From Betaproteobacteria bacterium (lineage in GTDB: Bacteria; Pseudomonadota; Gammaproteobacteria; Burkholderiales; SG8-41): a stretch of 46,461 nt of DNA. The position numbers and the translations under genes were made by a program. A model generated the notes under the pieces. It did not search any database and was not told the DNA's origin. It worked only from the letters and a program-made list of their open reading frames with translations. The stretch's first letter is position 1. Each line of letters starts with the position of its first letter. This document shows, piece by piece, positions 6,725 to 46,461 of this stretch. The stretch covers positions 1-46,461 of the forward strand of contig JACQGN010000009.1 in NCBI GenBank assembly GCA_016199545.1, written 5' to 3'.

Positions 6725-6997
6725 TCAGCCCTCGGATGACTGCGCCGGGGATTTGAGCTTGCGCTGGACTTCACCCTCCACGAACTCAACATATGGCTCG
6801 CCAGACAGGAGCGAGCGAATGGCGGCCTGGCACTCCGGATCGTCTATATCGACGATGTACAGAGCGGCGAGCTCCTTGTCCTTTTCGTTCGGGAACAGCG
6901 GGCGCACGGCCGCCGCTCCGGCATGGGTGACTCTTTCGATCACTCTCTGGCGGTGTGTGGCGGTTGTCGCACCTCGGAACTTGAGTTGGAGCTTCAT
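6725..6997 (-). CDS. small protein resembling a stand-alone subtilisin propeptide/I9-type inhibitor
   Basis: ATG at 6997; 90 aa; C-terminal half AALYIVDIDDPECQAAIRSLLSGEPYVEFVEGEVQ resembles the I9 'YIV...L...pxVxxVE' pattern; directly downstream of S8 peptidase. Confidence 0.55.
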   Translation of the reverse strand: MKLQLKFRGATTATHRQRVIERVTHAGAAAVRPLFPNEKDKELAALYIVDIDDPECQAAIRSLLSGEPYVEFVEGEVQRKLKSPAQSSEG

Positions 6998-7035
6998 TCT
7001 CCGGACCAACCGGGATTCTCGGGATTCTCCCCCGG

Positions 7036-8379
7036 CTACTTTAGCAGATTTGGCAGGTACAGTAGACCGTAGCCGTACTCTGAAGTTCTAGACTTTCCCT
7101 TCATCCCGAGGAGGCGCTTCGCCCGAGCTCGCAACAGCGAGCGGACCTTGGCTGCTGTAAGCTGCGGCGACTTGCCAAGTAGTCGCGCAACACCGCCCGC
7201 GACGTGAGGAGTCGCCATCGAGGTGCCATCCCAGGCGGCATATTCCACTTCATCCCGGTGCGCGGATTTCTTCATGGGAAGCGTGGACAGGATCGAAACG
7301 CCGGGCGCGACGACATGTATGTGTTTACCGGTATTGGAGAAATCGGCGCGGTCGAGCAAGCTGTCCACTGCTCCGACCGCTATCACGCCGGAGTACGCAC
7401 CGGGGTACTCCACCGGGTTTCCGTCGTTAAATTCGTTGCCCATGGCGGCGACGACGTTTATACCCCTGGAAACCAGCCGGCGAAAGAGCAGCTGCTCGGT
7501 CTGCGACGAACTCGCACCCCCGATGCTGAGATTGAGAACCCGCGCACCCGAATCCTCCACGGCCCGCAGTGATTGAAGGTAACGCTCGCCGTCCACGTAG
7601 AAATCCCCGTCGGTCGGTTTGTCCGGGAAGATTTTCCATACCTTGAGCTTGCAGTTCGCCACTCCGCTGATGCCGACCGCATTGTTCAATATCGCGGCGA
7701 TGATGCCCGCTACGTGAGTGCCGTGGCCCAGGACGTCTTCAGCGCGGAAGCCGCCGTGGTCGTAATCGATCGTGAGCTCCTTGAGATCGGGGTGCGTCGC
7801 GTCGATCCCGGTGTCGAGCACGGCGACGGTGATGTTATGCGCGCTTGGCAGCGCCTGGTCGAACCAGCCGATGGCATGCAACCCCCATTGCGAGCCCTGC
7901 ATGGGGTCGCCGGCCGCCGCCACGATCCATCGCGCCGGCATCGGTTCCACGAAATCGACTGCGTCCGACGCCTCAATGTCTTTTACGAGCTTGGCCGTCA
8001 CCGCCTTTGGATCGACCTCGACCATATTGAACCCGCGCAGTTCCTCCGAGGGCGATGCCGCCACGCTCATCACCAGGGCCGCCTTGTGCGCTCCTCCCTT
8101 GATGCCCGCGAATTTGATCTTCGGATCCACGGCGCCGGAAAAGAGGGGCGTGACTGTTTCGAGCCCGGCCCTGTTCCTGAGGTAGTCGAGCGGACCCGAA
8201 ACCGTTTCGGGCATTTCGTGAACCGCCGTGGTCATGCGCGCCGCCGAGTGAAACATTCTCGGCCCCACCCGGGGAATCGCCTTTTCCTTGAAGCGGACGA
8301 TGAGCTGTCCAGGAATGTGCGTCAGGCGATGCTTTACGCGGAATGTCGGCTGTTGGGTCCTGCGTGTTCTGGCTGGCAT
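7036..8379 (-). CDS. S8 family serine peptidase (subtilase) with N-terminal prodomain, no obvious signal peptide
   Basis: AVLDTGIDATHPDL (Asp), GHGTHVAGI (His), GTSMATPHVAGG (Ser); start MPARTRRTQ. Confidence 0.95.
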   Translation of the reverse strand: MPARTRRTQQPTFRVKHRLTHIPGQLIVRFKEKAIPRVGPRMFHSAARMTTAVHEMPETVSGPLDYLRNRAGLETVTPLFSGAVDPKIKFAGIKGGAHKAALVMSVAASPSEELRGFNMVEVDPKAVTAKLVKDIEASDAVDFVEPMPARWIVAAAGDPMQGSQWGLHAIGWFDQALPSAHNITVAVLDTGIDATHPDLKELTIDYDHGGFRAEDVLGHGTHVAGIIAAILNNAVGISGVANCKLKVWKIFPDKPTDGDFYVDGERYLQSLRAVEDSGARVLNLSIGGASSSQTEQLLFRRLVSRGINVVAAMGNEFNDGNPVEYPGAYSGVIAVGAVDSLLDRADFSNTGKHIHVVAPGVSILSTLPMKKSAHRDEVEYAAWDGTSMATPHVAGGVARLLGKSPQLTAAKVRSLLRARAKRLLGMKGKSRTSEYGYGLLYLPNLLK

Positions 8380-8413
8380 GATTTTTCTCCCTCTTTGAAT
8401 TATTCCGTTGCCT

Positions 8414-8881
8414 TCATTTGCCACCGTCGACTATCGCGATATCCAGGGAATCCAGTTGGGCGAACGCCCAGCTGTCCTCCTTCGATTGATCCCTCAGGGC
8501 AATCAAAGAGCCCGCTATCGCGACTTTCCCACCGGCCTTGATCGGCACACCCAGCCTGGCATCCAGGGGTCCGTGCTGGTCCGACGACGAAACCATGACG
8601 CGGCGCCCCCGCGCCATCAGGAGAATGAGCGCCCATCCGGACGGCGAGGACGATTCCAGGGCGCCACGAAGATCGATCGTAAGCAGCGATCGCTTCTTGA
8701 TGCCGTTCACGCGGAATTCGAGACCGAAGGACCGCGACTCGACCTTGCCCGCGGCATCGGCTTTGTCGTTCGTCACCATCGCCTTGTCGAACAGGATGCT
8801 CAGCTCAGCGCTGTCGGGAGAAAGCGTGCTGATGAGCTTCTCCTTGCCACGGGTCAGCTTCGGCTTGGTAAGGGTGGGCAT
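8414..8881 (-). CDS. hypothetical protein in protease/lipoprotein operon
   Basis: 155 aa; 11 bp downstream of the 1333-aa gene and same strand; no family recognised. Confidence 0.75.
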   Translation of the reverse strand: MPTLTKPKLTRGKEKLISTLSPDSAELSILFDKAMVTNDKADAAGKVESRSFGLEFRVNGIKKRSLLTIDLRGALESSSPSGWALILLMARGRRVMVSSSDQHGPLDARLGVPIKAGGKVAIAGSLIALRDQSKEDSWAFAQLDSLDIAIVDGGK

Positions 8882-8892
8882 GCGTGTTTCCT

Positions 8893-11800
8893 CTACCTGG
8901 GTCCGCCGGTCGCAGCCTGCCCAACGAGAGTGAGCGAGGTGTCCAGCTGCCGCAGGGTGTCGATCCTGCGCTTGGCATTGCGCACGATGAGCGGATTTAC
9001 TGTATCGACGACCGACTTCGCTCCGCGCGTCCGGTTTTCAACCGCATTTTCGTGGCTGGATCGGGCTAGATTGGCGGCGGTCTCGAGACCAGGAATGTTC
9101 TTCTCCAGATTCTTTCTTTCATCGCTATCCAGGGGAAGCGCTTGCGCCTTGCGGCGCTGCTCGGCAAGCGCACCGTTCTTCTGGGCCAGATCAGTCGAAT
9201 ACTTCTCAACGAGGGGGTTGTCCCCGCGAATCAGCGACTCCAGCCTGTCCCTCAGCCTGCGCATGGATTCGAGCGCCCGGATCATCACGCCCGCCTGCTC
9301 CGCCGCGGTCGCGTCTTCCTTGGCAAGAATGTCCGTGAGCGCGTCGTTCGAGGACTTGATCTCGGCGATGCCGGACGCGTCCTCGGTCACATGCCTCGAC
9401 TTCAGTCCGTTCAAAACATCGTCCCTGGACGCGCCGCTCAGACCGCTTTCCCATGCGCTTCGGATGTCCTCGCCAAGGCGTCCGATTTCTTTCCGCAGGT
9501 CTTCCGCCTCGCTCCTTGTCCGCTTTGCGTGATCGGCGCGATAACCTTCGACCAGCCTCCCCAGTGCATCGGTCCCGGCTGTGCCCGGCTGGGCATTTAC
9601 CTTGTCGAGCTCCCCGCGTATCCCCGCCTTGCTCTCCTCGGGCGTGTCGCGCGAATCCAACTGACGCTGGAGCTGTGCCCGGCGCAGCAGGTTGAGGTCG
9701 AGCCCTTTGCCGATGCCAAACAGCGCCAGCCCCTGCGCGGATCTGAAGATGTCGCTCGGGTCTGCCGAGTAGGCCTTGACGTACCAGTTTCCGACGTCGT
9801 CCTTGGCGAGCACATAGTTGATGTTTCCGCCGCCCGCCAGGTTGACGGTGTTGATGTTCTGCCAGTGCTGCTTGTCGATCTCGCCGAGCGTTTCCAGGTA
9901 CCCCTTTTCGAACTGCGTGAGCGTCGATGCGCCGAGAGAGCGGTTGGTATTGCGGGCAATCATGTTGACCCAGTCCACGTCGGGTTTCGCCTGCAGCGAG
10001 GTCGCCGCGTAGACGCTCCTGAGATAAGCGCTAGCAGGACGCAGGTAAGCAAGATCGGCGCGCTGCTCGAGCACGCTCTCGATTGCCTTCTCCAGGCCAC
10101 GCGCGCGCCTCGTCTCGTTGGACGCAAGGGCGTGTGTTCGCTGATTGCGCAGCATGGCGAGCAGGTCGTCCACCACGTCCTTCTGCGTGGGGTGGGCGTC
10201 GCGCGATTGGACCATCACTGGGGCCCGCACCGGCGTCGTCTCCTTGACCAGCTTGAGCGCGATGTCGAAGCCGCGCCTTCTCTGCACATCGCCGTCAGCC
10301 GTCGAACTCTCGATCTTCTTGCGCTCAGCCTGCAGCGCGTCGGCGAGCAATGCGAGAAGGCCGGCCTGCCTCGCGACACCGGCATCGTTGGCCTTCTTCA
10401 GCACGCTGCCGCGCAAGGCGTCCAGCTCTTCTCGCGCCTTGCTGTAGTCCGCGTGTCGGCCCGCGGCCTGCCCCCCCCGCTTCAGCCTGGCCACCTCACG
10501 GCCGAGCTCGGCTTCCTGCCGCATCAGCGTTTTCACGTTGGCGCGCTCCGACGCAAGGTCGAACAGGAGTTTCTCATTCAGGTTCCTGAAAAATGTGCTC
10601 GCGTCATCGCCCGGCAGCGTGGCGAGCGCATCGCCGTTCGTCTTGAAGAACTTGCTCGTCTTGTCGAGGTTCATCCCCCACGCGGAGCGTTTGCCCGCAT
10701 CGGTGATCGCCTCGAGTTGATAAGCGTCGTCGACGGCCTTCTTTATCGCCGCGATGACATCCGCGCCCTTCTTGGTTTTGTCCTTTGCGAGCGCCTTCAC
10801 CTGCCCATCGATCGAATCGATGAGCTTGACGCCCCTGGGATCGGGCTTGGCACGGGGCTTCGCCGAAGGCGGGAAGACGACCGATATCGCCGCCGCCAGC
10901 GACTCGGCCGACTCCTCGGCGCCTTCACGCTCCCCCTTCTTACCCTGGAGCTTTTCCTCCTCGATCGCCAGGGGCGTCTTTCCTCCCTGGGGCACGGGTT
11001 TCGCGGGAACTACGTCGCGGCTTATGCGCTCGATTTCCGAGTGCAGGTTGCGGAGCAGATTGTCGAGCGCCTGGGCAGGCGTAAGATCGAAGGCGCCGCG
11101 AACCGCCTCGGCCTCCACCCGCCCGCGATCTCTCAGACGCTGCTGGTGCTCGTCGCGCCGGCGCGTGTCATCAGCATGAATGAGGATGGTGTTCGCCACG
11201 GCCTGCACGACTGCGGCCTCGCGCGCGACCTCCGCCGCCCCGCGCTGGTCCTTCTGATCCGGCGGGAGAAGCGCACGGTTGTTGACCGCTACCAGCACGC
11301 GCTCCGCCCAGATGATGAGCGTCTCCTCCAGCTTCTTTCTTGCACTAATGACACGCGGGTTCCGTAGGTCGTTGCCGTAATGCAAGAGCGTTTCCTGGAA
11401 CTTGGTGGTAAGCGAGTCAATCCCCTGAATCTGCCTTGCACGCTCGAAACCGGCGACGGTCCCTGCCGCTATCAGCGACAGGTTGGAAGCCAGCCTGGAG
11501 AGTTGCTGGCTGAAGTTGCGGCCTAGGGTCGGACCGCGGGAAAATCCGAATTGGCGGGCTATCGCAGGAACAACCTCAAGATTATCCTTGCCTGAAAGCG
11601 CCGTGCACCCCGTGAGGTCCCCGGGTGTGGCGACAATGAACGCCCGGTCGCTCTCCTTGAGCAGCTTGACCATTTCCTTCGGAAATCGCGTTGCCGCCTC
11701 CCTGATAGCGCGGCCCGCGCTGTCGTAGGGATCAAGCGAGTCTGCGTTCTCGGACGAATCCGCTGTCCTCGGCTCCAGTTCCCATACCAGACGACCCGTC

Positions 11801-12894
11801 GAGTCCCTCAGCACGGAACGCTCCAGCACGCTACCGAGCCCGCCTGTGAGCGGTGGAGCGCCCTTCCTCGTCAGATAGCAGGCTATTGCCCGGGGTTGCG
11901 AGGTCGCCGCCAGGAAGCGCGCCGCGAGTTGGAGCTGGTCGGAACGATCGGCGTCGCCGAGATGGTCCACGATCTCGAGCATTGCCTTCCAGAGAGATCG
12001 CATCGCGCGCCGCATCTCGAGGAACGCCTCCGAGATTTCCTTCACGCGGGAGACATAAGATTGATCGATCGTCCCGAAGAGGACAGAAGAATAGCCGGCA
12101 AGAACTTCGCTTTTCGACATCTCCGTGTAGATCTCGTTCGCGCCAGCGTTCTTCGAAGCGCAGGCGATATTGTCACGCCCGTCGACGTGCTTTCTTCGCT
12201 GCGCAGCAGGCAATTCCGAAAGCGACTGTTCCATCAGACGACAAGCGCAATGCAGCTCTTCCGCAAGCTTGCGTTTGTTCGGCTCGACATTGTGCAGCGC
12301 CGCGACCGACGCTTTCTTCTGTCGGTCGGCCTCCAGCGAGCATGCCGATGGGACTTGCGTGCTGTCCTCACTCATGAGAAACCGGGCGTGAATGTAGCCG
12401 AACAGCCGCCGGTGCTCATCGATCCCGACGGGATTGCTGGTCATCCGCGGATATGCCTTCAGCAGCCTTTCGGCGAGCGGCCTGTCCTTGCTCTCGGAGA
12501 AGCCAAAAACCTCGTTCTGGTGCCACACCACCTGGAAAGACCGATTTGCACTTTCCATCTCGCTGCCGAGCACAGAATCGGCCGTATCATGGTAAAAGCT
12601 GAGCGCGCCGTTGACGAAACGCGCCGTCTCGTTCGTGAACTTGTAGGCGGGCGCCCAATCGTCGCGGAACGGTCCGAGGCTTTCTCCGAATTTTTCGTTG
12701 CCTTTCCCTTCGAGGCGATTCCTCAACGATGCGAGCACCGGGCGCGCCGCTACGGCGAGCGCAGCATACTGGCGCACCTGTATGTCCTCATGGTTGGCGA
12801 GCGGGCCCTTGTAGACATCGACGTCGATGCGCAGGGCGGCGCAACCGGCGAAGGTCAGCGCGGCAAAAGTAGCAAGCCCGATCCGCGTATTCAT
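8893..12894 (-). CDS. very large (1333 aa) predicted lipoprotein, mostly charged/helical
   Basis: N-terminal MNTRIGLATFAALTFAGCAAL lipobox; single long ORF; ATGA overlap with upstream gene. Confidence 0.85.
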   Translation of the reverse strand: MNTRIGLATFAALTFAGCAALRIDVDVYKGPLANHEDIQVRQYAALAVAARPVLASLRNRLEGKGNEKFGESLGPFRDDWAPAYKFTNETARFVNGALSFYHDTADSVLGSEMESANRSFQVVWHQNEVFGFSESKDRPLAERLLKAYPRMTSNPVGIDEHRRLFGYIHARFLMSEDSTQVPSACSLEADRQKKASVAALHNVEPNKRKLAEELHCACRLMEQSLSELPAAQRRKHVDGRDNIACASKNAGANEIYTEMSKSEVLAGYSSVLFGTIDQSYVSRVKEISEAFLEMRRAMRSLWKAMLEIVDHLGDADRSDQLQLAARFLAATSQPRAIACYLTRKGAPPLTGGLGSVLERSVLRDSTGRLVWELEPRTADSSENADSLDPYDSAGRAIREAATRFPKEMVKLLKESDRAFIVATPGDLTGCTALSGKDNLEVVPAIARQFGFSRGPTLGRNFSQQLSRLASNLSLIAAGTVAGFERARQIQGIDSLTTKFQETLLHYGNDLRNPRVISARKKLEETLIIWAERVLVAVNNRALLPPDQKDQRGAAEVAREAAVVQAVANTILIHADDTRRRDEHQQRLRDRGRVEAEAVRGAFDLTPAQALDNLLRNLHSEIERISRDVVPAKPVPQGGKTPLAIEEEKLQGKKGEREGAEESAESLAAAISVVFPPSAKPRAKPDPRGVKLIDSIDGQVKALAKDKTKKGADVIAAIKKAVDDAYQLEAITDAGKRSAWGMNLDKTSKFFKTNGDALATLPGDDASTFFRNLNEKLLFDLASERANVKTLMRQEAELGREVARLKRGGQAAGRHADYSKAREELDALRGSVLKKANDAGVARQAGLLALLADALQAERKKIESSTADGDVQRRRGFDIALKLVKETTPVRAPVMVQSRDAHPTQKDVVDDLLAMLRNQRTHALASNETRRARGLEKAIESVLEQRADLAYLRPASAYLRSVYAATSLQAKPDVDWVNMIARNTNRSLGASTLTQFEKGYLETLGEIDKQHWQNINTVNLAGGGNINYVLAKDDVGNWYVKAYSADPSDIFRSAQGLALFGIGKGLDLNLLRRAQLQRQLDSRDTPEESKAGIRGELDKVNAQPGTAGTDALGRLVEGYRADHAKRTRSEAEDLRKEIGRLGEDIRSAWESGLSGASRDDVLNGLKSRHVTEDASGIAEIKSSNDALTDILAKEDATAAEQAGVMIRALESMRRLRDRLESLIRGDNPLVEKYSTDLAQKNGALAEQRRKAQALPLDSDERKNLEKNIPGLETAANLARSSHENAVENRTRGAKSVVDTVNPLIVRNAKRRIDTLRQLDTSLTLVGQAATGGPR

Positions 12895-13640
12895 TTGCCC
12901 CCCGCCTCGGTGCGCAGATCCTCCAGTCGGTCGCGCTGCATCCGGAGCTCCGCGAGATCGTTGAAGAGCGCTCGCTGCAGGTCGAAGCCTCCCCTGCCCT
13001 GCGTCGCCGAAGCCACCACTCCCAGCGCCTCGTCGATGGCTGAAAAAAACGCCTGCGGATTCGCTCCCATGACGACCACCAGCCGATGGTCCTTGGGGGC
13101 CTCCCGGAACCCCTCCGGCCCGAACATCACCAGCCGGCGGCCGGTCTTCAGCGCCTTCGTCTCTTCATCGGCCCGCTTGATCTCGAATCCGCCGCCGTTG
13201 CCCGCGTGCGCGATCGTGGACAGGGAATCGACGAGATCAGCACGCACCCAGCCCGAGGCGAACTTCGTGAAATTGAGCATGCTGGACTGGCCGCGCACGC
13301 GCACCCGGTACATCGTCGGCGGCAACTGCTCCTGCGGGTCGAACACGCCAAGGTAGTACACCTGCTCGATGTCGGTCGACGGAATCTGGCTTGCGATGGC
13401 GGTGCCGACGACCAGGGCGCCGACGGCCGCCTTCTCCCCCGAAGAGAGGTTGGCGCACCCGCTCAGCACGAGGCCCGCTCCCACCGCGCTGGCCGTGAGA
13501 AGGCTGCACCAGGAACGCCCGACAGCGGCGCTCCATGAATCTGCACCGACGTCACGTACTTCGCTCACGTGCGATTTCGACAAGTCATTGCGCAAGATTC
13601 CGGTTACCATCCCTCTCCCTTTCGTCTGTATCGATACCAT
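12891..13640 (-). CDS. predicted lipoprotein, 249 aa (start may be internal)
   Basis: LLTASAVGAGLVLSGCANL lipobox; 4-bp ATGA overlap with the 1333-aa lipoprotein gene. Confidence 0.8.
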   Translation of the reverse strand: MVSIQTKGRGMVTGILRNDLSKSHVSEVRDVGADSWSAAVGRSWCSLLTASAVGAGLVLSGCANLSSGEKAAVGALVVGTAIASQIPSTDIEQVYYLGVFDPQEQLPPTMYRVRVRGQSSMLNFTKFASGWVRADLVDSLSTIAHAGNGGGFEIKRADEETKALKTGRRLVMFGPEGFREAPKDHRLVVVMGANPQAFFSAIDEALGVVASATQGRGGFDLQRALFNDLAELRMQRDRLEDLRTEAGGK

Positions 13641-13679
13641 CGGCTGTTTCGATCTGCTTTTTGGTTGCCGGGTCGGCTG

Positions 13680-15179
13680 CTAAAGCTGGAACGAGTATTC
13701 GTAGAACAGCGGCGTGACCGTGAGCCGCGTCGTGAACGCCTTGCGCTGCGCCTCGGTAAGCGACGCCAGGCTTTCCTTTTTCGGCGCGTCCTGGTCCGAA
13801 AACACCAGGCGCCCGCCGGTCTTTTCCCTGAGCCGCTTCACTAGCGGCTCGAACGGCATCTCGTCCCAGCGGTTCTTCTTCGCCTGCTCCTTCGAAACCG
13901 GCACGAACGCGATCAGATCGTCGCTCGTCATCTGCTCCAGGCCGAGCGTGCGCAGGGTCGCGTTGTGGCTGCCGTGGTGGCCGACCTTGTAGAACACCAC
14001 GCGTTGGAGCAGGTCGGGTCCCGTCACGGTCCGCGTCTCGTTGCCATCCTTGACGGTCCATTTCGTGTCCTGCCAGGAAAGCCAGTTGCCCACCTGGGCG
14101 TCGGCGGCGAACAGGAGCACCTGCCCGCTCTTCACCAGCTCGAACGCGAGCACGAGGCAGGTGTTGTTGGTGTGGCTGTCGAGATTGAGCGCGAGCGTTT
14201 CGGCGGCAGCGGTCCAGTCGAGTTCGATCTTGCGCCAGCTCTCCTCGGGCTCGTCCCAGGTGTCGGCGATGAGCCTCGTCAGCGCCGCGGGCACGGGCTT
14301 CGCCCCCGTCTTCCCCGGAAACAGCGAGAGGTTCTCTTCGAACGGGCAATCCGGGCCGCCTGCTTCGCCCGGCGCCTGGAGACGCTCGAATGCCACCGCC
14401 AGGTTGTCGTCGATCGCCGCGTCCAGGGCGAACTCGTAGACTTCCTTCCCCTTCTTGGTGGGGGAGCTGCGCTTGATGCGGGCTTCGTCCTCGGGCGGCC
14501 CCAGCACGTACACCCGGACGCCGTCCACGCCGGGAAGGGTGAGGGCCGCTTTGGTGGGATAGCGGTAGCTCACCTTCACGCCGCGGCGCTGGCCCAGGTA
14601 CTCGAAGGCGCTCCGGGTCTTGCCGATCGCCTCGCCGGCCGCTGCCAGGCCCTGCAGGCTCGCGGTCGATTCGACGCCGAAGAATTGCAGCAGCGTTTCG
14701 ACCCGGGCCGCGCGACCGGCCGCAAGAGGAGCTGCGTTGCCGCGGAGCGCCATCGCCGCCGCATGCAGGGCCTTCACCTTCGCCGCGCGCTCCTTGCGCA
14801 GCTTCTTCCCGAGCTCGTTCTCGGGATCCTCGGTCCAGGCATACCAGACCTCGCCTACGTCGATGTTGTCGAAGGCGTCCTGGGCCTGCTGCGTCGAGAA
14901 GCCGGAGGCATGGTCCCAGTGCTCGTGAGTCATGACGGCGATGTCGATGCGGCTGCCGCAGCCCTCGGCGATGCTGGCGACCACTTTCTGCATCGTCGGC
15001 TTGGGGTCCTTGGCGACGCCGATCAGGCCGCAGTCGATCAACACGGTGAACGAGCTGTTGCCGCCTTCCTTCGGGAATCGCAACAGGAAGCAGTCGCCGA
15101 GGCCGTGGCGGTACATCCGCACGAGCACCTGCCCGCCAGGGGTCTTTTTCCTCGATCTTGGCTTCGGAGCTTGCGCCAT
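13680..15179 (-). CDS. metallo-beta-lactamase fold protein, ComEC/Rec2-like
   Basis: ATG at 15179 (MAQAPKPRS); MTHEHWDHASGF, FAADAQ, KVGHHGSHNAT motifs. Confidence 0.88.
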   Translation of the reverse strand: MAQAPKPRSRKKTPGGQVLVRMYRHGLGDCFLLRFPKEGGNSSFTVLIDCGLIGVAKDPKPTMQKVVASIAEGCGSRIDIAVMTHEHWDHASGFSTQQAQDAFDNIDVGEVWYAWTEDPENELGKKLRKERAAKVKALHAAAMALRGNAAPLAAGRAARVETLLQFFGVESTASLQGLAAAGEAIGKTRSAFEYLGQRRGVKVSYRYPTKAALTLPGVDGVRVYVLGPPEDEARIKRSSPTKKGKEVYEFALDAAIDDNLAVAFERLQAPGEAGGPDCPFEENLSLFPGKTGAKPVPAALTRLIADTWDEPEESWRKIELDWTAAAETLALNLDSHTNNTCLVLAFELVKSGQVLLFAADAQVGNWLSWQDTKWTVKDGNETRTVTGPDLLQRVVFYKVGHHGSHNATLRTLGLEQMTSDDLIAFVPVSKEQAKKNRWDEMPFEPLVKRLREKTGGRLVFSDQDAPKKESLASLTEAQRKAFTTRLTVTPLFYEYSFQL

Positions 15180-15195
15180 GAGTGTCTCCGGCAGG

Positions 15196-17148
15196 TCAGG
15201 CTTCGCTGTGAAGGAGCGAAAGCGGCTCGTCGTCGAGCCTCGTCCCGTCTCCGCCGGTGCCGAAATAGGTGCCCCGGAGCGACAGGCGCTCCTCGCCCTT
15301 GCGCTTCCGGTAGCCGCGGATCTCGGCGAGCCGCTGCTCGTCGTCGATGCGGCGCGTGATGGCATAGCGCAGGCTCGGCTTTTCACCCTCCAGGTCGAAG
15401 ATGAGCGTCGCGCCGCCGCGGAACTCGAATCTGCCCAGGGCCCGATTCTCCGGATCAATGAAGACGCGGCGTACCTGCGTGAGCACCATGATGAGCTGCT
15501 TCATGATCGTGCCCGCGGGGCTCACGCGCAGGGCGGGCCGCAGCGCGTGCACCTCGAAATAGGGAATGCCGTTCGACTTCACAGCGAGACCCTCCAGCCC
15601 GCTCTTGCTCCAGAGATTCAGTCCTGTCACCCGATTGAATTCGGGGCGATGGGGGGCATCGCTGAGGTCGGACATGGATACTTCGAGATACTCGTGTATC
15701 GCGCCCCTCGCGTCGCGCAACCTGTGGAACAGCACCCGCCGATCCCGGACGTACAGCGTCTCCGTAATCTGCGGCCGCAGCTTCGCAGCCACTTCCGTCA
15801 GCGCACCCCAGCCCTCGAAATCCTCCATCCGCGCAAAGGGCAGGCGCAGTTGCTCCTCCGAGAGCGTGCGCAGCCCCTTCGGGAGGATTCCCCAGCGCCG
15901 GAACGATTCGATCAGCGCCACGCGATAGCCGTAGCGATCGTTGGGCACCATGTCGAAGTCGGCGGTGACGAGGGCGCGCAGATAGTCGCCGAAGGTCATG
16001 TCCACCGGTGGGCAGTAGTCCAGCGCGCGGATGCACATGTTGAGGAAGGTCTTCGCAGTGGCGTTCGCCTGCTCGGTGAGCCGGTTGACCAGGTCCGGAT
16101 GGATCGAGCCTGCGGGAAGCACGCCGGTTCCGGCCGTCGCAAGGCGTATCAGGTCCTCGACGCGGGCCTTGTTGACCGCGAGGAATGCGCCGAACACGGC
16201 CGCCACCAAGATGGCGCCGCGGGCATGCGGCTCGAACTCGTTCCCAAGGCGGGCGGGATCCGGCTCGATGGGGTGCCACTTGCCGTCGGGCCCGCGCTCA
16301 CCGATGGCACTGCGTAGCGCCCCGTAGCGCCCGGTCGCTTCACCGAACTGCTGCGCCAGCTCGCCCAACAGGGACTGACTCGCGAGGTCGCCGCGGGTCT
16401 GCGCGATCTGATGGCGGAGGACCTCGGGAAACATGAAATGCTCGAAGAGCGCGACGAGATCGGCGAAGGCCTCGTGGAAGGCCAGCGAGTCTTCGTGATT
16501 GTCCTCGATGAAGCGCCGGTGCATGCCGTCGAGGAGCGCGTGCGTCGTCTCGTGCGCCACGATATCGTGCGACAGGCAGGAGAACACCATGCCGGATGGG
16601 CCGGGGAAATATCCGAACAGCAGGGCCCGCTTGTTCGGGCTGTAGTAGGCGTTGGCGGCCCGCAGGGCATGCGGATAGATCCGCAGGCGCTGAACGTACA
16701 CGTCGCGCTGTCCGGGCGGTTGCGTTTCGTCGTAGAGCGCCGCCCAGAAGATCTGCCGCCCCAAGGCATGCTCAAAGTTGGCGATCGTGTTCATGGTGGC
16801 CGCATACACCATCTGCTGGTGGAACTGCGGGTTGCCTTCGGACGGCGCGAGGCCGTCCTGGGCGACGATCTCGAGCTTGTTCAGATCGACGGGCTCGTAC
16901 CAGCAGCCGCTCGCCGGGTCGTAGTCGAGGACCTCGACGTACTCGCCCACGGGACCGGGATCGAGCTTTCGCTCCCAGGGCGTCTCGAACACCGCCTGGT
17001 TCATCGAGGCCGTGTCCAGCCGCAGCGCGAGGCTCGGATCGAAGGCGTAACCGCGCAAGCGCCGAAAGGGCGGCGGTGGCGCCGTGGCGGACGCGGGATC
17101 GTCGAGTTTACGGTCCAGGTAGAACTGATTGGAATCCGGCGAGAACAT
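15196..17148 (-). CDS. gluzincin-type zinc metallopeptidase
   Basis: 650 aa; VAHETTHALLDGMHRRF (HExxH) followed by AFHEAFADLVALF supplying a third-ligand Glu; no signal peptide visible. Confidence 0.78.
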   Translation of the reverse strand: MFSPDSNQFYLDRKLDDPASATAPPPPFRRLRGYAFDPSLALRLDTASMNQAVFETPWERKLDPGPVGEYVEVLDYDPASGCWYEPVDLNKLEIVAQDGLAPSEGNPQFHQQMVYAATMNTIANFEHALGRQIFWAALYDETQPPGQRDVYVQRLRIYPHALRAANAYYSPNKRALLFGYFPGPSGMVFSCLSHDIVAHETTHALLDGMHRRFIEDNHEDSLAFHEAFADLVALFEHFMFPEVLRHQIAQTRGDLASQSLLGELAQQFGEATGRYGALRSAIGERGPDGKWHPIEPDPARLGNEFEPHARGAILVAAVFGAFLAVNKARVEDLIRLATAGTGVLPAGSIHPDLVNRLTEQANATAKTFLNMCIRALDYCPPVDMTFGDYLRALVTADFDMVPNDRYGYRVALIESFRRWGILPKGLRTLSEEQLRLPFARMEDFEGWGALTEVAAKLRPQITETLYVRDRRVLFHRLRDARGAIHEYLEVSMSDLSDAPHRPEFNRVTGLNLWSKSGLEGLAVKSNGIPYFEVHALRPALRVSPAGTIMKQLIMVLTQVRRVFIDPENRALGRFEFRGGATLIFDLEGEKPSLRYAITRRIDDEQRLAEIRGYRKRKGEERLSLRGTYFGTGGDGTRLDDEPLSLLHSEA

Positions 17149-17249
17149 GGTTCATTCGCTTTCTTCTGTCGGCTCGACGACCGGCCCCCCAACAGCGTAA
17201 AGGCACGGACACGCCGCAATCCATTGGCGTTTTGGCCTAGTACGGAAGT

Positions 17250-17375
17250 CGTACGGATTACGGCCTGCGCGCATGCGTAGCGCAGGCTCCCTTCGCTCAG
17301 GCAGTGCAGGTAGAAACCGTAATCCTCCCCGGCAAAGAAGCGGGGCGCGCCGTCATTGCCGCGTTGAAGCGTAAC
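17250..17375 (-). pseudogene. N-terminal fragment of a REP-associated tyrosine transposase (RAYT, TnpA_REP-like)
   Basis: Minus-strand translation VTLQRGNDGAPRFFAGEDYGFYLHCLSEGSLRYACAQAV, matching the RAYT pattern QRGN...FF..EDY.FYL.CL.E; cut off next to repeat 17381-17440. Confidence 0.65.
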
Positions 17376-17380
17376 TTAGC

Positions 17381-17440
17381 GAGGAAATAGGTCACAGTCG
17401 GGCGTAGCCGACAAACGATGTCAGGGAATTCCTGACGCAG
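17381..17440 (+). repeat. double-hairpin repeat, right copy flanking the island
   Basis: cacagtcgggcgtagccgacaaacgatgtcagggaattcctgacg; includes palindrome gtcagggaattcctgac. Confidence 0.75.
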
Positions 17441-17457
17441 ACGACGCCCCGAATAAC

Positions 17458-17580
17458 CTAGCCCTTCGTCTGCGACCAGCCGTAGGCCTTAGCGGAGGCG
17501 CCGCCCATGAGTATCGCCCGCTCGCTCTCGGTGAGGCGCTTGATCTGGCGGAAAGGCTTGACCGCCTCTTGCGTCGTTGA
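17458..17580 (-). pseudogene. C-terminal fragment of an amidohydrolase paralogous to 4368-5210
   Basis: EAVKPFRQIKRLTESERAILMGGASAKAYGWSQTKG vs EAVEPFRQTNRLTDSERAMLMGGACAKAYGWSPKKS. Confidence 0.85.
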
Positions 17581-17587
17581 CGACGCA

Positions 17588-17654
17588 ACGTCTATGAGTA
17601 CCAGAACGGCACGTGGCGCATGGTGACCTGGCAGTCGACGAAGCTTCCCGACTA
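17588..17654 (+). pseudogene. duplicated 3' end of the NTF2-like gene at 6239-6610
   Basis: cgtctatgagtaccagaacggcacgtggcgcatggtgacctggcagtcgacgaagcttcccgacta; one mismatch over 66 bp against 6544-6609. Confidence 0.9.
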
Positions 17655-17743
17655 AAAGGTCATTCCCGGACGCTCCAGCGTCAGGCTCTGCGGTTCTCCT
17701 TGAGCGGAGTATGTCGTTCATGAACAACATCGTGCGGGCGCGG

Positions 17744-18712
17744 CTAATCGAGCTTCACGCCGAACTGGCGGAATAGCTTGCCTATCTTCTCGTAATCTGT
17801 CCTCAGGCGCTGGGCCAACTGTTCCGGCGTCCTGTGCACGGGGTCGTACGTCAGGTCGCTCAGCCTCGAGGCGATCGCGGGATCGCGCAACGCGTTCCCG
17901 AGCTCGGTGTTCAACCGATCGAGGATTGCCTTGGGGATTCCCACCGGTGCAAGAACAATGACCCAGGTCGTGGCTTCGTACCCCGGGAAGGTTTCCGCGA
18001 CCGCCGGCACATCCGGGAGCTTCTTCACCCGCTCCAACGAGGTTACCCCCAGCGGACGCACGCGATTCGACTTGATATGCTCGATAATATCGCCGATCCC
18101 CGCGGTCATGGCGTGGATTTCCCCGGAGACCAGGCCCACTACAGTGGGTCCACCGCCTTTGAACGGCACCTGGGTAACCTGGATGCCCGTCGTGGATTCC
18201 AAGATCACCGTGTTCAGGTGGATGAAGCTTCCGTAGCCGGCATGGCCGAAGAGGACTTCTTTCGGGCGTTTCTTCGCCAGCGCGATGAACTCCTTCACCG
18301 ACCGTGCCGGCACCGAGGGGTGCACGGTCAATACGGTCACCAGATTCCCGAGAGGGGTTATCCCGACGAAATCGCCCAGCGCGTCGTACGACAGCTTCTT
18401 GTACAGGTGCGGGTTGGAAGTGTGGGAGGCGACGGTTTGTATCAGCAGGGTATAGCCGTCGGGCCGGCTTTGCGCCACGACGGCCGAGCCGACCGTGCCT
18501 CCCGCGCCCGAGCGGTTTTCGATGATGAACTGCTGGCCCATCTGCTCGGAGAGCTTCGGGAAAACGATGCGTGCCATGATGTCGTTCGCCCCTCCCGGGG
18601 GAAACGGGATGATCACGCGCACGGGCTTGGCGGGATAAGCCTGCGACCAGGCCGCGCCCCCTGCGCACAGCATGCCGGCGATGAATGCTGCAAGAACACG
18701 AATTGCTCTCAT
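17744..18712 (-). CDS. Bug/TctC family tripartite tricarboxylate transporter substrate-binding protein
   Basis: 322 aa from MRAIRVLAAF signal peptide; YPAKPVRVIIPFPPGGANDIMAR. Confidence 0.93.
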   Translation of the reverse strand: MRAIRVLAAFIAGMLCAGGAAWSQAYPAKPVRVIIPFPPGGANDIMARIVFPKLSEQMGQQFIIENRSGAGGTVGSAVVAQSRPDGYTLLIQTVASHTSNPHLYKKLSYDALGDFVGITPLGNLVTVLTVHPSVPARSVKEFIALAKKRPKEVLFGHAGYGSFIHLNTVILESTTGIQVTQVPFKGGGPTVVGLVSGEIHAMTAGIGDIIEHIKSNRVRPLGVTSLERVKKLPDVPAVAETFPGYEATTWVIVLAPVGIPKAILDRLNTELGNALRDPAIASRLSDLTYDPVHRTPEQLAQRLRTDYEKIGKLFRQFGVKLD

Positions 18713-18838
18713 GCCATGCGCCCTCCTCTTGGCTGTTCGTATCGTGGACATTATAGCCACCTGGGTCCTGCAGATGATTTGACGCCCGCCGCGTTGCGGG
18801 AGATACCGTAAAAGCGTATCGGCCCGTGGACGGATCTC

Positions 18839-19792
18839 GTGATCCGTTATTACGAGTCGGGCGCCGATGTCCCCAAGGTGCCGGCCTCCAGTTGGAAGCC
18901 CGACAAGGCCGTCGAGTTCGTCGTGCAGGCTGCAGCCGGCGGCGGCAGCGACATCTTCGGCCGCACCATAGCCAAGATCATGTCCGACGAGAAGATCGTC
19001 ACCGTGCCGATCAACGTCGTCAACAAGCCGGGCGGCAGCGGCGCGGTCGCATACTCGTACCTGAGCCGGACGAAAGACGATCCGCACGTCATCGCGACCG
19101 CGACCGGTGGCTACATCACCACGCCGGTGCAGGGGAAGTCACCGGTCAGCTACAAGGATTTCACCAACCTGGCGGTGCTGTGCGTCGAGGACTATGTCGG
19201 CGTGGTACGCGCCGATTCGCCCTAGAAGTCGCTGAAGGACCTGATCGCGGCGGCGAAGCAGAAGCCGAATGGCATCCGGTTCGGTGGCAGCAACCCCGGA
19301 TCTTCCGACAACATCATCGAAACCCGGCTGGAGAAGGCGGCGAAAGTCCAATTCAATTACATTCCATTTCAGAGCGGAAGCGAGGTCAATGCGGCGCTTC
19401 TCGGGGGCACCGTCGACGTCGCCAGCCCGAATCCCAGCGAGGCAGCGCAACTGGTGAAGGCAGGCCGGCTGCGGCCGCTCGCCATGTTTTCTCCGGAGCG
19501 GCTCGGCCAGTGGAAGGACGTCCCGACAGCAAAAGAGCAGGGGTTCGATGTCACGCTCTCGCAGTTCCGCGGCGTGGTGGCTGCGGGCGGGCTGGGCAAG
19601 GAGCAGTCGCTGTTCTGGCAGAACGCGATGGTGAAGATGTTCCAGTCGCCCGGCTTCAAGAAGTACCTGCAGGAAAACGGTCTGCGCCCGCTGGTCAAGG
19701 TCGGAGGCGACGCTGACAAGTACCTCGCGGAGCAGACTGCCTTCTACACGGAAATTCTCTCCGAACTCGGCATGGTGAAGAAGAAGAAATAG
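18839..19792 (+). pseudogene. TctC-like substrate-binding protein, no signal peptide and interrupted by an in-frame TAG
   Basis: ORFs 18839-19225 and 19454-19792 share a frame; VRADSP*KSLKDLIAAAKQKPNGIRFGGSNPGSS reads straight through one TAG; in-frame TAA at 18809 precludes an upstream signal sequence. Confidence 0.8.
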
Positions 19793-20302: not shown

Positions 20303-21808
20303 ATGAACCCGGACCACCTGCTGCTCGGCTTCTCGCTCGCGACCACCCCGGTCAACCTGCTGTTCGCCTTCCTCGGGGTATTGCTGGGCACGATCATCGG
20401 CGCTTTGCCGGGGATCGGCCCATCGGCCGGCGTCGCCGTGCTGCTGCCGGTGACTTTCGGCATGTCACCGGTCTCCGCCATGATCATGCTGGCCGGTATC
20501 TATTACGGCGCCCAGTACGGCGGCACCATCACCTCGGTGCTGATCAACACCCCGGGCGAGTCGTCATCCGTCATGACCACGCTCGACGGTTACCAGATGG
20601 CGCTCAAGGGCCGCGCGGGGGCCGCGCTGGGAATAGCTGCGATCGGTTCGTTCATCGCGGGCACACTCAGCGTCGTGCTGCTGATGGTCGCCGCGCCGCC
20701 GCTCGCCGAGTGGGCCGTCAGCTTCGGACCGCTCGAATACTTCGCCCTCATGGTGCTCGGGCTTACGACGCTGGCGAGCCTCACCGGAGGCTCCATGCTG
20801 AAAGGCCTGGCGATGGCGCTGGCAGGGTTGCTGCTCGGAACCGTCGGCATCGATCTCATGATGGGCGAGCCGCGCTATACATTCGGAATGGTCGAGCTGT
20901 ACGACAGGCTCGATTTTCTCCCCGTCGCCGTCGGCCTGTTCGCCCTTGGGGAGATTCTATACAACATCTACCAGCCCGTTCGGCTCGAGCCGATCAAGGC
21001 CAAGCTGAGCGGCCTGCTGCCCACGCGCCAGGACTGGCGCGACTCGTGGGGGGCCATTGCGCGCGGCACGGTCATCGGCTTTTTCGTCGGCGTTCTTCCG
21101 GGCGCGGGCGCGACCATTGCATCGTTTCTCGCGTATGCGACCGAGAAGCGCGTCTCCAAGCGCCCGGAGCAGTTCGGCACCGGGGTCATCGAAGGGGTGG
21201 CGGCGCCGGAGTCGGCCAATAACGCGGCGTCCACGGGCGCGCTGGTGCCGCTGATGGCGCTCGGCATCCCCGGCTCGGGTACCACCGCCGTGATGCTCGG
21301 AGCATTGACGCTTTATGGATTGCAGCCCGGGCCGCTCCTGATGAGCACGAACCCGGAGGTTTTCTGGGGGCTGGTCGCCAGCATGTACGTCGGCAATGTC
21401 ATGCTGCTGATCCTCAATCTTCCGCTCGCGCCGGCGTTCGCGAGCGTTCTGCGCATTCCCTACAGCGTGCTCATACCGATCATCATCGGCATCGCGTTGT
21501 TCGGCGTCTACAGCGTCGAGAACAGCATTTTCAACGTGGGCGTGGCGCTTCTCTTCGGGGGCATCGGCTTTGTCACGCGCATCTACGGCTATCCGCCGGC
21601 GCCGCTGGTGCTGGCGGTGGTGCTCGGGCCCATGCTGGAAAAGGCGCTGCGGCAGCCGATGCAGATGTCGCTCGGCCGCCTGGACGTCTTCGTCACGCGG
21701 CCGGTGAGCGCAGGAATCCTGGCCTTCGCCCTGTTGGCCGTGCTGTATCCGTTCGTTCTTTCGTTCTTTGCGCGCCGCCGCGAACAGGCGCTCGCCGGTT
21801 CGCGCTGA
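20303..21808 (+). CDS. tripartite tricarboxylate transporter permease, TctA family
   Basis: 501 aa; [57 protein letters not shown]. Confidence 0.96.
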
Positions 21809-25015: not shown

Positions 25016-26024
25016 ACCGCAGAACTGGAAAGCCGACGTCGTCCGGTCCGTTGACATGTACAACGACTGGTTCATGAAGTTCGCGCCGAAGGCTTTTCGT
25101 GACACCCGCATCTAGACGACTAAGGACGTTGAGGCGGCGCTGAAAGCGACCAGGAACCTCACCGATATACAGCCGTCCTTGCTGAAGCGGCATCCCGCGA
25201 TCCTGCCGACACTGCGGATGTCCACCTGCCCACCGCTGGCCGTTGACCGGCTGATTGGCCTCGCGAAGATTTCCAAGAGCCTTGTCAAGCGGATGGAAAA
25301 AGAACACAAGCTTCCGGTGCGCATGAGAGAACCGGTTCTAAATGCCGAGCTCGCGAAAATCGGCACCATTATTAAGAAAATGGCGGACCCAGATATTTTT
25401 GTGTGGCTTGGCCGACGCGCGCAGGCGACTGAAGTCGAAATACACCGGGCCGCCACAATCGTGGCTGACCGGCTGTGCGGTTCCGTCGCCAATCCGATCA
25501 TCCGCAACGCACAGGAAAAGCGCCAGCTCGCGGAAATCAAGGCATGGCTCGAAGCACGCGGTTACAAACAGCTGCCGGCGGGAGGCGGCACAAAATTCAA
25601 TGCGATGCCGCCGGGGACCTTTAGCTTTCGCATGAACGTTCCCATCCGGCTTGTGGGCGGCGAGGAAGCCTTGAAGTTGCTTGAAGAGTCTGAGGACCGT
25701 AAGCCCGTCATCCAAGAGGACGAGGAAGGCGTTAAGGTTAATATTCCGATAGATGCGGTGATCATGCCGAAGAAGGCGAAGCGGGGCGATCTGCCCGTCT
25801 TTTTCGAAGCGAAATCGGCAGGGGACTTTACGAACACCAACAAGCGCCGCAAGGAAGAGGCCGTGAAGATGGCGCAATTGCGAAATACATACGGCAACAA
25901 GATGAGTTTTAACCTTTTTCTATGCGGCTATTTCGATAGTGGCTATCTTGGCTACGAAGCCGCCGAGGGCATTGATTGGGTGTGGGAGCACCGCATCGAC
26001 GACCTCGCAAAATTCGGGATCTGA
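24996..26024 (+). pseudogene. XamI-like type II restriction endonuclease gene with in-frame amber at 25113-25115
   Basis: Frame from ATG 24996: MGVNLDRPQNWKADVVRSVDMYNDWFMKFAPKAFRDTRI*TTKDVEAALKATRNLTDIQ... continues into the 281-aa ORF at 25179; family call from remembered XamI-type sequences. Confidence 0.7.
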
Positions 26025-27620
26025 ATGACACGCAGCACTGAAAAACTTGAGCAAGAACGGCTAGCGTTACAGGCCGACCTGGACGGCCACAAGACGCAAG
26101 GCGAGCGCAACCGATTGGGCCAGTTCGCAACGCCCACATTGCTGGCACGCGACGTGGCGACTTATGGTCTTTTATTGCTGCCAGAATACACGCCGATCCG
26201 GTTTTTCGATCCGGCGATAGGCACGGGCTCTTTCTACTCGGCGCTCCGGGCAACAGCTAAGGATCGACTCATCGAATTTGCCAGAGGCTTCGAAATCGAT
26301 CCCCACTACGCGAAGCCTGCACAGGAGCTTTGGCGGGAAACGACGCTGAAGATCGAACTGGCCGACTTCACGCGGCAAGCCGTGCCTGCGGACGAAAAAA
26401 GCAAACCGAATTTACTGATCTGCAATCCGCCATATGTCAGGCACCATCACATAGACGCGGGAGAAAAAAACCGGCTGCGTCATGCCGCAGCCGAGGCCGC
26501 GCATATCCATCTAAGCGGATTGTCGGGTCTGTATTGCTATTTCATGGCGATGTCGCACGCATGGATGAGCGATGGCGGCATTGCGGGCTGGCTCATTCCG
26601 AGCGAATTCATGGACGTCAATTACGGGCGCCACGTGAAGCAATATCTTCTGCGCGAGGTGACGCTCCTGCATATACATCGCTTTGATCCGAACGACGTGC
26701 AGTTTGACGATGCGCTTGTGTCGTCCGCTGTAGTCTGGTTCAGGAAGGCCAAGCCGACACCAGATCACCGCGTAACGTTTTCGTACGGGGGAACGCTTAA
26801 TGCGCCGATGATCTCGAAAGAAATCAGCGTTCACGATTTACGCCTTAACGTGAAGTGGACGAAGTTTCCGCGCACCGATCCTGCAAGGGAACACGAGGGC
26901 TACCGATTGGACGATCTTTTTGCCATCAAGCGTGGCCTTGCGACCGGAGATAACAGTTTTTTCATACTGGATGAGGACCGGGTAAGAGCGTTGAACCTAC
27001 CGCGTGAGTATCTGCGTCCCGTGTTGCCGAGCACGAGATACATCAAGGCGGATGAGATCAAGGCAGACGCGGAGGGCGTTCCATTGCTGGACAAGCGGCT
27101 TTTTCTGATCGACTGCGACATGTCCGAAGATGACTTACCCCGCAACTATCCTGCGCTTTGGGACTATCTGAAGGGCGGACTAGAGACAGTCGCGCCGCGT
27201 TATCTCTGTCGGTCGCGCCGCGTCTGGTATTCACAGGAACGCCGACCAGCCGCGCCGATTGTCTGCACGTATCTGGGCCGCAGCGACCATGACGGCCGCC
27301 CGTTCCGGTTCTTGCTGAACCACTCGCAGGCGACGGCGACGAACGTCTATCTAATGCTTTATCCGCAGCCGCTGCTTGAGGCCGCCCTTGCGAAAAACCC
27401 AGGGGCCCTGCGCAAGCTCTGGCAGGCGCTCAACAACATTCGCCCAGCAACACTACTCAGCAGTGGTCGCGTTTACGGCGGGGGGCTCCACAAGCTGGAG
27501 CCGAGGGAACTTGCGAGTGTGCCCGCTGATGACCTGGCCGCCCTCGTTGGGCTGAAGCCGAAAAGGGTAACGCGTCAACTTGAATTGCTAGAAAAACGCG
27601 CGGCCTACGCGGTCATGTAA
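26025..27620 (+). CDS. N6-adenine DNA methyltransferase (Eco57I-like), partner of the XamI-like endonuclease
   Basis: 531 aa; FFDPAIGTGSFYSAL (motif I), LLICNPPYVRHHH (motif IV); starts immediately after the endonuclease stop. Confidence 0.92.
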   Translation: MTRSTEKLEQERLALQADLDGHKTQGERNRLGQFATPTLLARDVATYGLLLLPEYTPIRFFDPAIGTGSFYSALRATAKDRLIEFARGFEIDPHYAKPAQELWRETTLKIELADFTRQAVPADEKSKPNLLICNPPYVRHHHIDAGEKNRLRHAAAEAAHIHLSGLSGLYCYFMAMSHAWMSDGGIAGWLIPSEFMDVNYGRHVKQYLLREVTLLHIHRFDPNDVQFDDALVSSAVVWFRKAKPTPDHRVTFSYGGTLNAPMISKEISVHDLRLNVKWTKFPRTDPAREHEGYRLDDLFAIKRGLATGDNSFFILDEDRVRALNLPREYLRPVLPSTRYIKADEIKADAEGVPLLDKRLFLIDCDMSEDDLPRNYPALWDYLKGGLETVAPRYLCRSRRVWYSQERRPAAPIVCTYLGRSDHDGRPFRFLLNHSQATATNVYLMLYPQPLLEAALAKNPGALRKLWQALNNIRPATLLSSGRVYGGGLHKLEPRELASVPADDLAALVGLKPKRVTRQLELLEKRAAYAVM

Positions 27621-31309: not shown

Positions 31310-31355
31310 CGTGCCCTCCCTTGGTGGTGTTCTGCGAACGCGACGTGCGCCCGCG

Positions 31356-43745: not shown

Positions 43746-43942
43746 AGGAGTTTGTCGGACTGAGCCCCGACAAACTCCTTATGCAAAACTGGTACCGGAG
43801 AAGTGCGAGACAATGGAAGAGAATAGGTGACGCCACATACGCTTTCCCTCAAGTTCGACCGCTTCGAGTGGTTTTATGATGAACGGCCAGCCAGTTTTGC
43901 GTATAGCAGCCTGTGCGGGCTGTCAAGACCGACAGGCTGCTA
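43746..43942 (-). repeat. 197-bp double-hairpin dispersed element, copy 2 (inverted relative to copy 1)
   Basis: aggagtttgtcggactgagccccgacaaactcct ... tagcagcctgtgcgggctgtcaagaccgacaggctgcta; same length and shared core with copy 1. Confidence 0.85.
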
Positions 43943-43960
43943 GAGGGGAGACCTGAGACC

Positions 43961-45193: not shown

Positions 45194-45203
45194 CAGGCTG
45201 CTA
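45166..45203 (+). repeat. single hairpin related to the left end of the 197-bp element; overlaps gene 3' end
   Basis: tagcagcctgtcggacttgaagacgtgacaggctgcta. Confidence 0.85.
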
Positions 45204-45301
45204 AACGTCGATCGCGCGCGGTAGCGGCGATCCGTAGCCGCCGGCGCCGGGCTTCGGCTATGATCTCGCGGAATATCTGACCTGTCGTGGAGGAAGCACT
45301 C

Positions 45302-46351: not shown

Positions 46352-46386
46352 CAGCCTGTCGGACTTAAAGCTCCGACAGGCTGCTA
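46349..46386 (+). repeat. hairpin of the same family; its first three bases are the stop codon of the Gfo/Idh gene
   Basis: tagcagcctgtcggacttaaagctccgacaggctgcta followed by atgcaaaaccg as in copy 1. Confidence 0.85.
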
Positions 46387-46461
46387 AATGCAAAACCGCC
46401 CGCAGATTTGCAACGGAACGGTGCGAAAAGAACTGTTTTGGCCGTCGCCAAGGCACGGACC

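What the first reader, a model, noticed from the sequence alone, without database searches (positions are those of the whole stretch)
6725..17148. Seven-gene operon combining two proteases, an MBL-fold protein, two lipoproteins and an inhibitor-like protein
Seen: seven same-strand genes with gaps of about 11-39 bp or overlaps, in transcription order gluzincin peptidase, MBL-fold protein, 249-aa lipoprotein, 1333-aa lipoprotein, 155-aa orphan, S8 subtilase, 90-aa inhibitor-like protein. Established: HExxH...E, THxHxDH/HHGS and D/H/S subtilase motifs are catalytic signatures; MBL plus protease combinations recur in bacterial conflict systems. Inference: the enzymes lack visible signal peptides while two partners are lipoproteins, suggesting an envelope-sensing or effector module with an intracellular protease arm. 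I know no described system with this combination.
Basis: partly seen in the sequence, partly recalled or inferred. Interest (0 to 1): 0.85.

Follow-up and report, generated by a model that had tools for sequence, protein, structure and literature searches.

The report
Thermolysin-like protease paired with pro-nuclease
Two of the seven genes, an uncharted thermolysin-like protease and a nuclease-type metallo-beta-lactamase protein, form a pair found side by side in many bacteria and some archaea, probably a suicide-type virus defence in which the protease switches on the nuclease, while the other five genes are a local addition of unknown role.

Summary
The seven ORFs exist, lie on one strand, are tightly spaced, and show coding codon bias. 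They are not a recurring seven-gene system. The first two genes form a conserved pair: a thermolysin-like gluzincin (M4/M36 fold, catalytic residues invariant, no Pfam or NCBIfam family) and an MBL-fold protein related to Avs1a/LmuA-type nucleases. The pair is adjacent in 90 of 96 distinct loci across many bacterial phyla and archaea. It sits beside exchangeable partners: patatin, S8 subtilase fused to the gluzincin, an SMC/LmuB-like ATPase, or a caspase. On several plasmids it is next to CBASS, Hachiman or SIR2 genes. The MBL model has two low-confidence loops where Hachiman/AVAST pro-nucleases carry protease-cleaved "gating" insertions, and the larger loop holds a near-invariant Pro-Phe and a conserved Tyr. 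Best reading: a protease-activated pro-nuclease abortive-defence module, a new variant of the nuclease-protease pairs described in 2025. The S8 gene and its small I9-like neighbour resemble a separate subtilase-inhibitor module. The two lipoproteins and the 155-aa protein have no detected relatives, so the envelope-sensing idea is untested. No function has been shown experimentally.

The parts
15196..17148 (-). GLU: 650-aa thermolysin-like gluzincin, first gene of the operon; H199/E200/H203, E226, D230 and H308 correspond to the M4 catalytic set; C-terminal beta domain
   Evidence: Invariant catalytic residues in 41 aligned sequences; AF2 model pLDDT 84 with Foldseek probability 1.00 to M36 fungalysin, aureolysin and thermolysin; no Pfam, NCBIfam or PADLOC family above cut-off
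13680..15179 (-). MBL: 499-aa metallo-beta-lactamase-fold protein, putative gated pro-nuclease; low-confidence loops at about residues 171-190 and 241-300
   Evidence: PADLOC LmuA 7.9e-14, weak Avs1a/RTasMBL; colinear with an Avs1a-like protein over three motif blocks; AF2 pLDDT 86.5 with two low-confidence loops; metal ligands invariant in 44 aligned sequences
12891..13640 (-). LP249: predicted lipoprotein (LVLSGC lipobox), start perhaps 13610; lineage-specific, function unknown
   Evidence: Sequence; coding bias; no homologue in 369 class genomes beyond one negligible hit or in plasmids
8893..12894 (-). LP1333: predicted large lipoprotein (TFAGC lipobox), no detectable homologue
   Evidence: Sequence; coding bias; no homologue in 299 order genomes, plasmids or the two genomes with the nearest GLU
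8414..8881 (-). O155: 155-aa orphan
   Evidence: No family; no homologue in 299 order genomes or in plasmids
7036..8379 (-). S8 subtilase with N-terminal prodomain-like segment and no visible signal peptide; belongs to stand-alone S8 subtilases
   Evidence: Pfam Peptidase_S8 1.9e-53; 37-38% identical to stand-alone S8 of Sinorhizobium and Deinococcus, 24-28% to GLU-fused S8
6725..6997 (-). 90-aa I9-propeptide/inhibitor-like protein directly after S8
   Evidence: Weak pairwise similarity to the prodomain of the neighbouring S8, E 0.019; Sinorhizobium and Deinococcus S8 genes are also followed by an 84-87 aa gene

Best explanation
The functional core is GLU + MBL. MBL is made as an inactive DNase whose active site is covered by two disordered loops. 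On infection or another trigger, the cytosolic thermolysin-like GLU cuts one or both loops, probably near the conserved Tyr248 or Pro279-Phe280 of the larger loop. The freed nuclease then degrades DNA, so the infected cell dies or stops growing before the invader spreads. A third, exchangeable component (patatin, S8, SMC ATPase or caspase) supplies the trigger or a second effector. In this genome that place is probably taken by the S8 protease with its I9-like inhibitor, possibly coupled to the envelope through the two lipoproteins. Shown by computation: pairing, catalytic residues, folds, loops, partner exchange. Inferred: cleavage of MBL by GLU, DNase activity, defence role, and the roles of S8, the 155-aa protein and the lipoproteins.
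For: GLU is directly followed by MBL in 91 of 97 loci (90 of 96 without the duplicate L028 = L065), in Proteobacteria, Bacteroidota, Acidobacteriota, Planctomycetota, Deinococcus, Chloroflexota and archaea. Distances of the two proteins correlate across loci: r 0.73, permutation maximum 0.15. Distribution is patchy: 14 of 299 order genomes. Partners swap: patatin in 26 distinct loci, S8 fused to GLU in 12, SMC/LmuB-like in 2, caspase in 3 that lack MBL, plus a caspase-domain ORF upstream of a GLU-MBL pair in L120. A Desulfobulbaceae locus has GLU-MBL-S8-GLU-MBL with a stand-alone S8. Plasmid copies lie by CBASS, Hachiman or SIR2 genes. MBL aligns colinearly with an Avs1a-like protein, and the segment between the first two blocks is about 215 aa against 120. 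The model has two low-confidence loops; P279 is invariant (44/44), F280 is 42/44 and Y248 is 41/44. In HamM and EpiAvs1a such loops are cut by the partner protease to release a DNase (PMC12799240).
Against: No cleavage, nuclease or phage data for any member. Conserved loop residues were found only in the larger loop. GLU is neither trypsin-like nor caspase. About half of the loci (53 of 97) show no recognised third partner. The window copy lies among metabolic genes; the only other defence genes seen are a type II restriction-modification pair 8 kb away. The island comparison rests on 8 control windows.
Confidence: 0.55

Rival explanations
1. Protease cascade: S8 (in this operon, or fused to GLU elsewhere) is the initiator that cuts and activates GLU or MBL; GLU is itself a zymogen or a second step; the I9-like protein keeps S8 silent until a signal removes it.
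For: S8 recurs with the pair in three arrangements: fused to GLU (12 distinct loci), stand-alone in L071, and at the end of this operon. A small I9-like gene follows S8 here and in Sinorhizobium and Deinococcus.
Against: Window S8 is closer to stand-alone S8 (37-38%) than to GLU-fused S8 (24-28%), so it was probably recruited separately. GC3 falls from 0.83-0.89 in GLU/MBL/LP249 to 0.73-0.78 in the rest, which fits two joined modules.
Confidence: 0.25
2. MBL is not a nuclease but another hydrolase (for example acting on a nucleotide signal or a lipid), and GLU-MBL-patatin act together on envelope or signalling molecules.
For: Patatin is the commonest partner. Foldseek hits for the MBL model are only local and include lactonases and phosphodiesterases as well as RNase Z/CPSF-type nucleases.
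Against: Sequence relationship is to LmuA and Avs1a defence MBLs, whose best-studied members are DNases (PMC12799240). Patatin also occurs beside an Avs1a-like MBL in L133.
Confidence: 0.2
3. GLU-MBL-patatin are cargo or toxins delivered by a contractile injection or other secretion apparatus, not intracellular defence.
For: One relative (L033) has a contractile-tail-like sheath and tube gene cluster about 4.9 kb from its GLU-MBL-patatin genes.
Against: Sheath/tube genes occur in only one of 97 loci; no secretion signal is visible on the enzymes.
Confidence: 0.07
4. The seven genes are an accidental operon: a defence pair next to an unrelated lipoprotein/subtilase locus with no joint function.
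For: Downstream genes are absent from all relatives; the 71%-identical L042 ends after MBL; GC3 shifts along the operon.
Against: Small gaps and a 4-bp overlap across seven genes; no terminator-like site on this strand within the operon body; S8 recurs with the pair elsewhere.
Confidence: 0.3

Closest known systems
Gated pro-nuclease/protease pairs of Hachiman (HamM), AVAST type 1 (Avs1a-Avs1b), Lamassu and DRT (PMC12799240)
   Same: MBL-fold protein of the same superfamily branch, adjacent protease gene, low-confidence insertions between the same motif blocks, exchange between different defence partners
   Different: Protease is thermolysin-like (M4/M36), not trypsin-like; it is a free protein or fused to S8, not to HamA/Avs/LmuA; MBL lies downstream of the protease; the inter-motif segment is longer
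Canu (caspase-nuclease) loci (PMC12799240)
   Same: Nuclease gene downstream of a protease gene of another family; a caspase-domain ORF lies upstream of a GLU-MBL pair in L120 and upstream of GLU in three loci
   Different: No caspase in the window; GLU is the constant partner instead
Lamassu (LmuA-LmuB)
   Same: MBL matches a PADLOC LmuA model over its N-terminal part (7.9e-14); Hymenobacter loci have an LmuB-like SMC ATPase directly upstream of GLU-MBL
   Different: No SMC protein in the window or in most relatives
M4/M36 peptidases (thermolysin, aureolysin, fungalysin)
   Same: Fold and full catalytic residue set
   Different: Only 10-12% identity, no visible signal peptide, extra helical and C-terminal beta domains, operon partner MBL

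Membership tests
Gated MBL pro-nuclease with protease partner (PMC12799240) | MBL fold with intact metal-binding residues | tested here: met
   Ligands invariant in 44 aligned sequences; AF2 model
Gated MBL pro-nuclease with protease partner (PMC12799240) | Two disordered insertions between the motif blocks that block the active site | tested here: inconclusive
   Two low-confidence loops in the right interval; position relative to the active site not measured
Gated MBL pro-nuclease with protease partner (PMC12799240) | Conserved cleavage-site residue in each insertion | tested here: inconclusive
   Y248 and P279-F280 in the larger loop; no highly conserved residue in the smaller loop
Gated MBL pro-nuclease with protease partner (PMC12799240) | Adjacent trypsin-like or caspase protease | tested here: not met
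   Adjacent protease is a thermolysin-like gluzincin
Gated MBL pro-nuclease with protease partner (PMC12799240) | DNase activity after proteolysis; phage protection | not testable with these tools
   Needs biochemistry and phage challenge
AVAST type 1 | STAND NTPase Avs1b with protease domain | tested here: not met
   No NTPase domain in the seven proteins; MBL scores 23 bits against the Avs1a cut-off of 420
Lamassu | SMC-like LmuB | tested here: not met
   None among the seven genes; present in Hymenobacter relatives
Canu | Caspase-family protease | tested here: not met
   None in the window operon
Thermolysin-like peptidases, clan MA(E) | HExxH plus distal Glu, with M4-type Asp and second His | tested here: met
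   H199/E200/H203, E226, D230, H308 invariant in 41; fold match
Thermolysin-like peptidases, clan MA(E) | Membership of Pfam Peptidase_M4 or M36 | tested here: not met
   M4 E = 0.29, 12 bits, below the cut-off of 22.4
S8 subtilase | Catalytic domain with D/H/S motifs | tested here: met
   Pfam 1.9e-53; motifs at 186, 218, 385

The most novel reading that the evidence does not exclude
A large undescribed immune family in which a cytosolic thermolysin-like metalloprotease is the constant activator of a gated pro-nuclease while the sensor or second effector (patatin, S8, SMC, caspase) is exchanged. In this genome it is rewired into a protease cascade that senses the cell envelope through two lipoproteins.
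Probability: 0.15. Interest if true: 0.85.

Novelty: new variant of a known kind. Interest (0 to 1): 0.6.

Why it matters
If right, proteolytic activation of a death nuclease, known so far with trypsin-like proteases and caspases, extends to a third catalytic class (zinc metalloproteases) with hundreds of members across bacteria and in some archaea that current defence-system libraries do not name. It would also give a defined set of exchangeable partners with which to ask how bacterial immune systems attach new triggers to one executioner pair.

Tried and rejected
1) One conserved seven-gene system: rejected, because genes 3-5 and 7 are absent from every related locus.
2) Spurious long ORFs in GC-rich DNA for the lipoproteins and the orphan: rejected by codon bias.
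3) Known defence system by library: PADLOC, NCBIfam, Pfam and PHROGs give no full-length match except S8.
4) Solved relatives by sequence: none useful for GLU or MBL.
5) A sequence reference set of true Avs1a: only one distant locus in 200 genomes; used for the colinearity test only.
6) Patatin in the window operon: absent, although it is the usual partner in the nearest relatives.
7) Papers on thermolysin-like, patatin or subtilisin-type combinations with MBL in phage defence: none found beyond PMC12799240 in the held library; subscription papers and preprints are not covered.
8) Promoter scan: no sigma-70-like site; uninformative for this organism.

Full report
OBSERVATION. Seven minus-strand ORFs at 6725-17148 are real. 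The probable starts differ a little from the listing: MBL at 15179, S8 at 8379, the last gene at 6997, and perhaps 13610 for the 249-aa lipoprotein. Gaps are then 16, 39 (or 69), -4, 11, 34 and 38 bp. All seven have GC3 of 0.73-0.89 and positive codon scores, whereas the long antisense ORFs do not. GLU, MBL and LP249 have GC3 of 0.83-0.89 and the four later genes 0.73-0.78, which fits a composite of two blocks but is not proof.

WHAT THE GENES ARE. Only S8 has a family match above cut-off. GLU carries HETTH, E226, D230 and H308, all invariant in 41 aligned sequences. Its AF2 model (pLDDT 84) matches M36 fungalysins, aureolysin and thermolysin with probability 1.00 and target-normalised TM of 0.50-0.55 at 10-12% identity. 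It is a thermolysin-like gluzincin outside Pfam M4 and M36. MBL scores weakly against defence MBLs (PADLOC LmuA 7.9e-14, then RTasMBL and Avs1a; NCBIfam Avs1a and 6A-MBL). Its metal ligands are invariant in 44 aligned sequences.

THE CONSERVED UNIT IS THE PAIR. A tblastn search of plasmids found GLU in 62 records. The MBL search returned largely the same replicons, with the MBL gene beside GLU. A scan of GTDB species genomes found at least 485 relatives, of which the best 80 were kept. In 91 of 97 loci (90 of 96 without the duplicate L028 = L065) MBL directly follows GLU on the same strand. Four of the six exceptions are the distant GLU copies L029-L032, three of which pair with a caspase protein instead. 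The two proteins' distances correlate across loci (r 0.73, permutation maximum 0.15). That is expected for co-inheritance and does not by itself show interaction. In the order, GLU occurs in 14 of 299 genomes.

PARTNERS. Directly next to the pair are patatin (26 distinct loci), an S8 domain fused to the N-terminus of GLU (12), an SMC/LmuB-like ATPase in Hymenobacter (2) and a caspase in others. One Desulfobulbaceae contig has GLU-MBL-S8-GLU-MBL with a free S8. Fifty-three loci showed none of the partners searched for. Plasmid copies sit beside CBASS (L022, L127), Hachiman-type DUF1837+helicase (L021, L127) and SIR2 (L020) genes. Eight control windows on the same replicons gave one possible defence cluster and two HipA toxin genes. 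The comparison is small and annotation-based.

WHAT IS SPECIAL HERE. The lipoproteins, the 155-aa orphan and the 90-aa protein occur in none of the 97 loci. The 1333-aa lipoprotein and the orphan are also absent from 299 order genomes, and the 1333-aa lipoprotein is absent from the two genomes with the nearest GLU copies. LP249 has no credible match in 369 class genomes. The 71%-identical copy L042 ends after MBL; the 82%-identical copy L002 is on a 3.3-kb contig and cannot tell. Window S8 is closest to stand-alone S8 proteins of Sinorhizobium and Deinococcus that are also followed by an 84-87 aa gene. The 90-aa protein resembles the S8 prodomain only weakly (E 0.019 in a one-to-one comparison), so 'I9-like' is plausible, not proven.

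MECHANISM. In Hachiman HamM and AVAST Avs1a, an MBL-fold DNase is held inactive by two disordered insertions, and a partner protease cuts conserved residues in them. Caspase-linked and other protease-linked nucleases form further clades (PMC12799240). The window MBL aligns with an Avs1a-like protein in three colinear blocks (18-118, about 334-360, about 398-420), with about 215 residues between the first two against about 120. The AF2 model (pLDDT 86.5) has low confidence at residues 171-190 and 241-300 in that interval. Sequence there is poorly conserved, except P279 (44/44), F280 (42/44) and Y248 (41/44). I infer that GLU cuts MBL in this loop and frees a nuclease. This is the analogy, not a result.

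VERDICT. The core works like the known nuclease-protease pairs as far as sequence shows, but it fails one defining feature (a trypsin-like or caspase partner), so it is filed as a new variant and not as a member. The seven-gene operon is a lineage-specific elaboration whose extra parts have no assigned role.

Noticed in passing
window 25179-27620: A type II restriction-modification pair: XamI-type endonuclease (Pfam RE_XamI 9e-120) followed by an Eco57I-like methylase, about 8 kb from the operon.
   Followed up: partly
window 20303-21808, 30332-31423, 37925-38905: TctA and TctC-type (tripartite tricarboxylate transporter) genes; a further receptor-like ORF at 17744-19087 was judged from sequence only. 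The operon's surroundings are mainly metabolic, not a dense defence island.
   Followed up: no
L033, genes at about 15794-19293: Contractile-tail-like sheath, tube and baseplate genes near a divergent GLU-MBL-patatin set; unique among the 97 loci.
   Followed up: partly
L133 3337-5605: A patatin close to the GLU-MBL-associated patatins lies directly before an Avs1a-like MBL gene without GLU, so patatin is shared between different gated-MBL contexts.
   Followed up: partly
L029, L030, L032: About 980-aa caspase-domain protein directly upstream of a GLU relative without MBL.
   Followed up: partly
L121 3-2234: An S8 protein carrying only the C-terminal domain of GLU, so that domain is a separate shared module.
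   Followed up: no
window 43940-46456: An 838-aa ORF reaching the contig end with no Pfam match.
   Followed up: no
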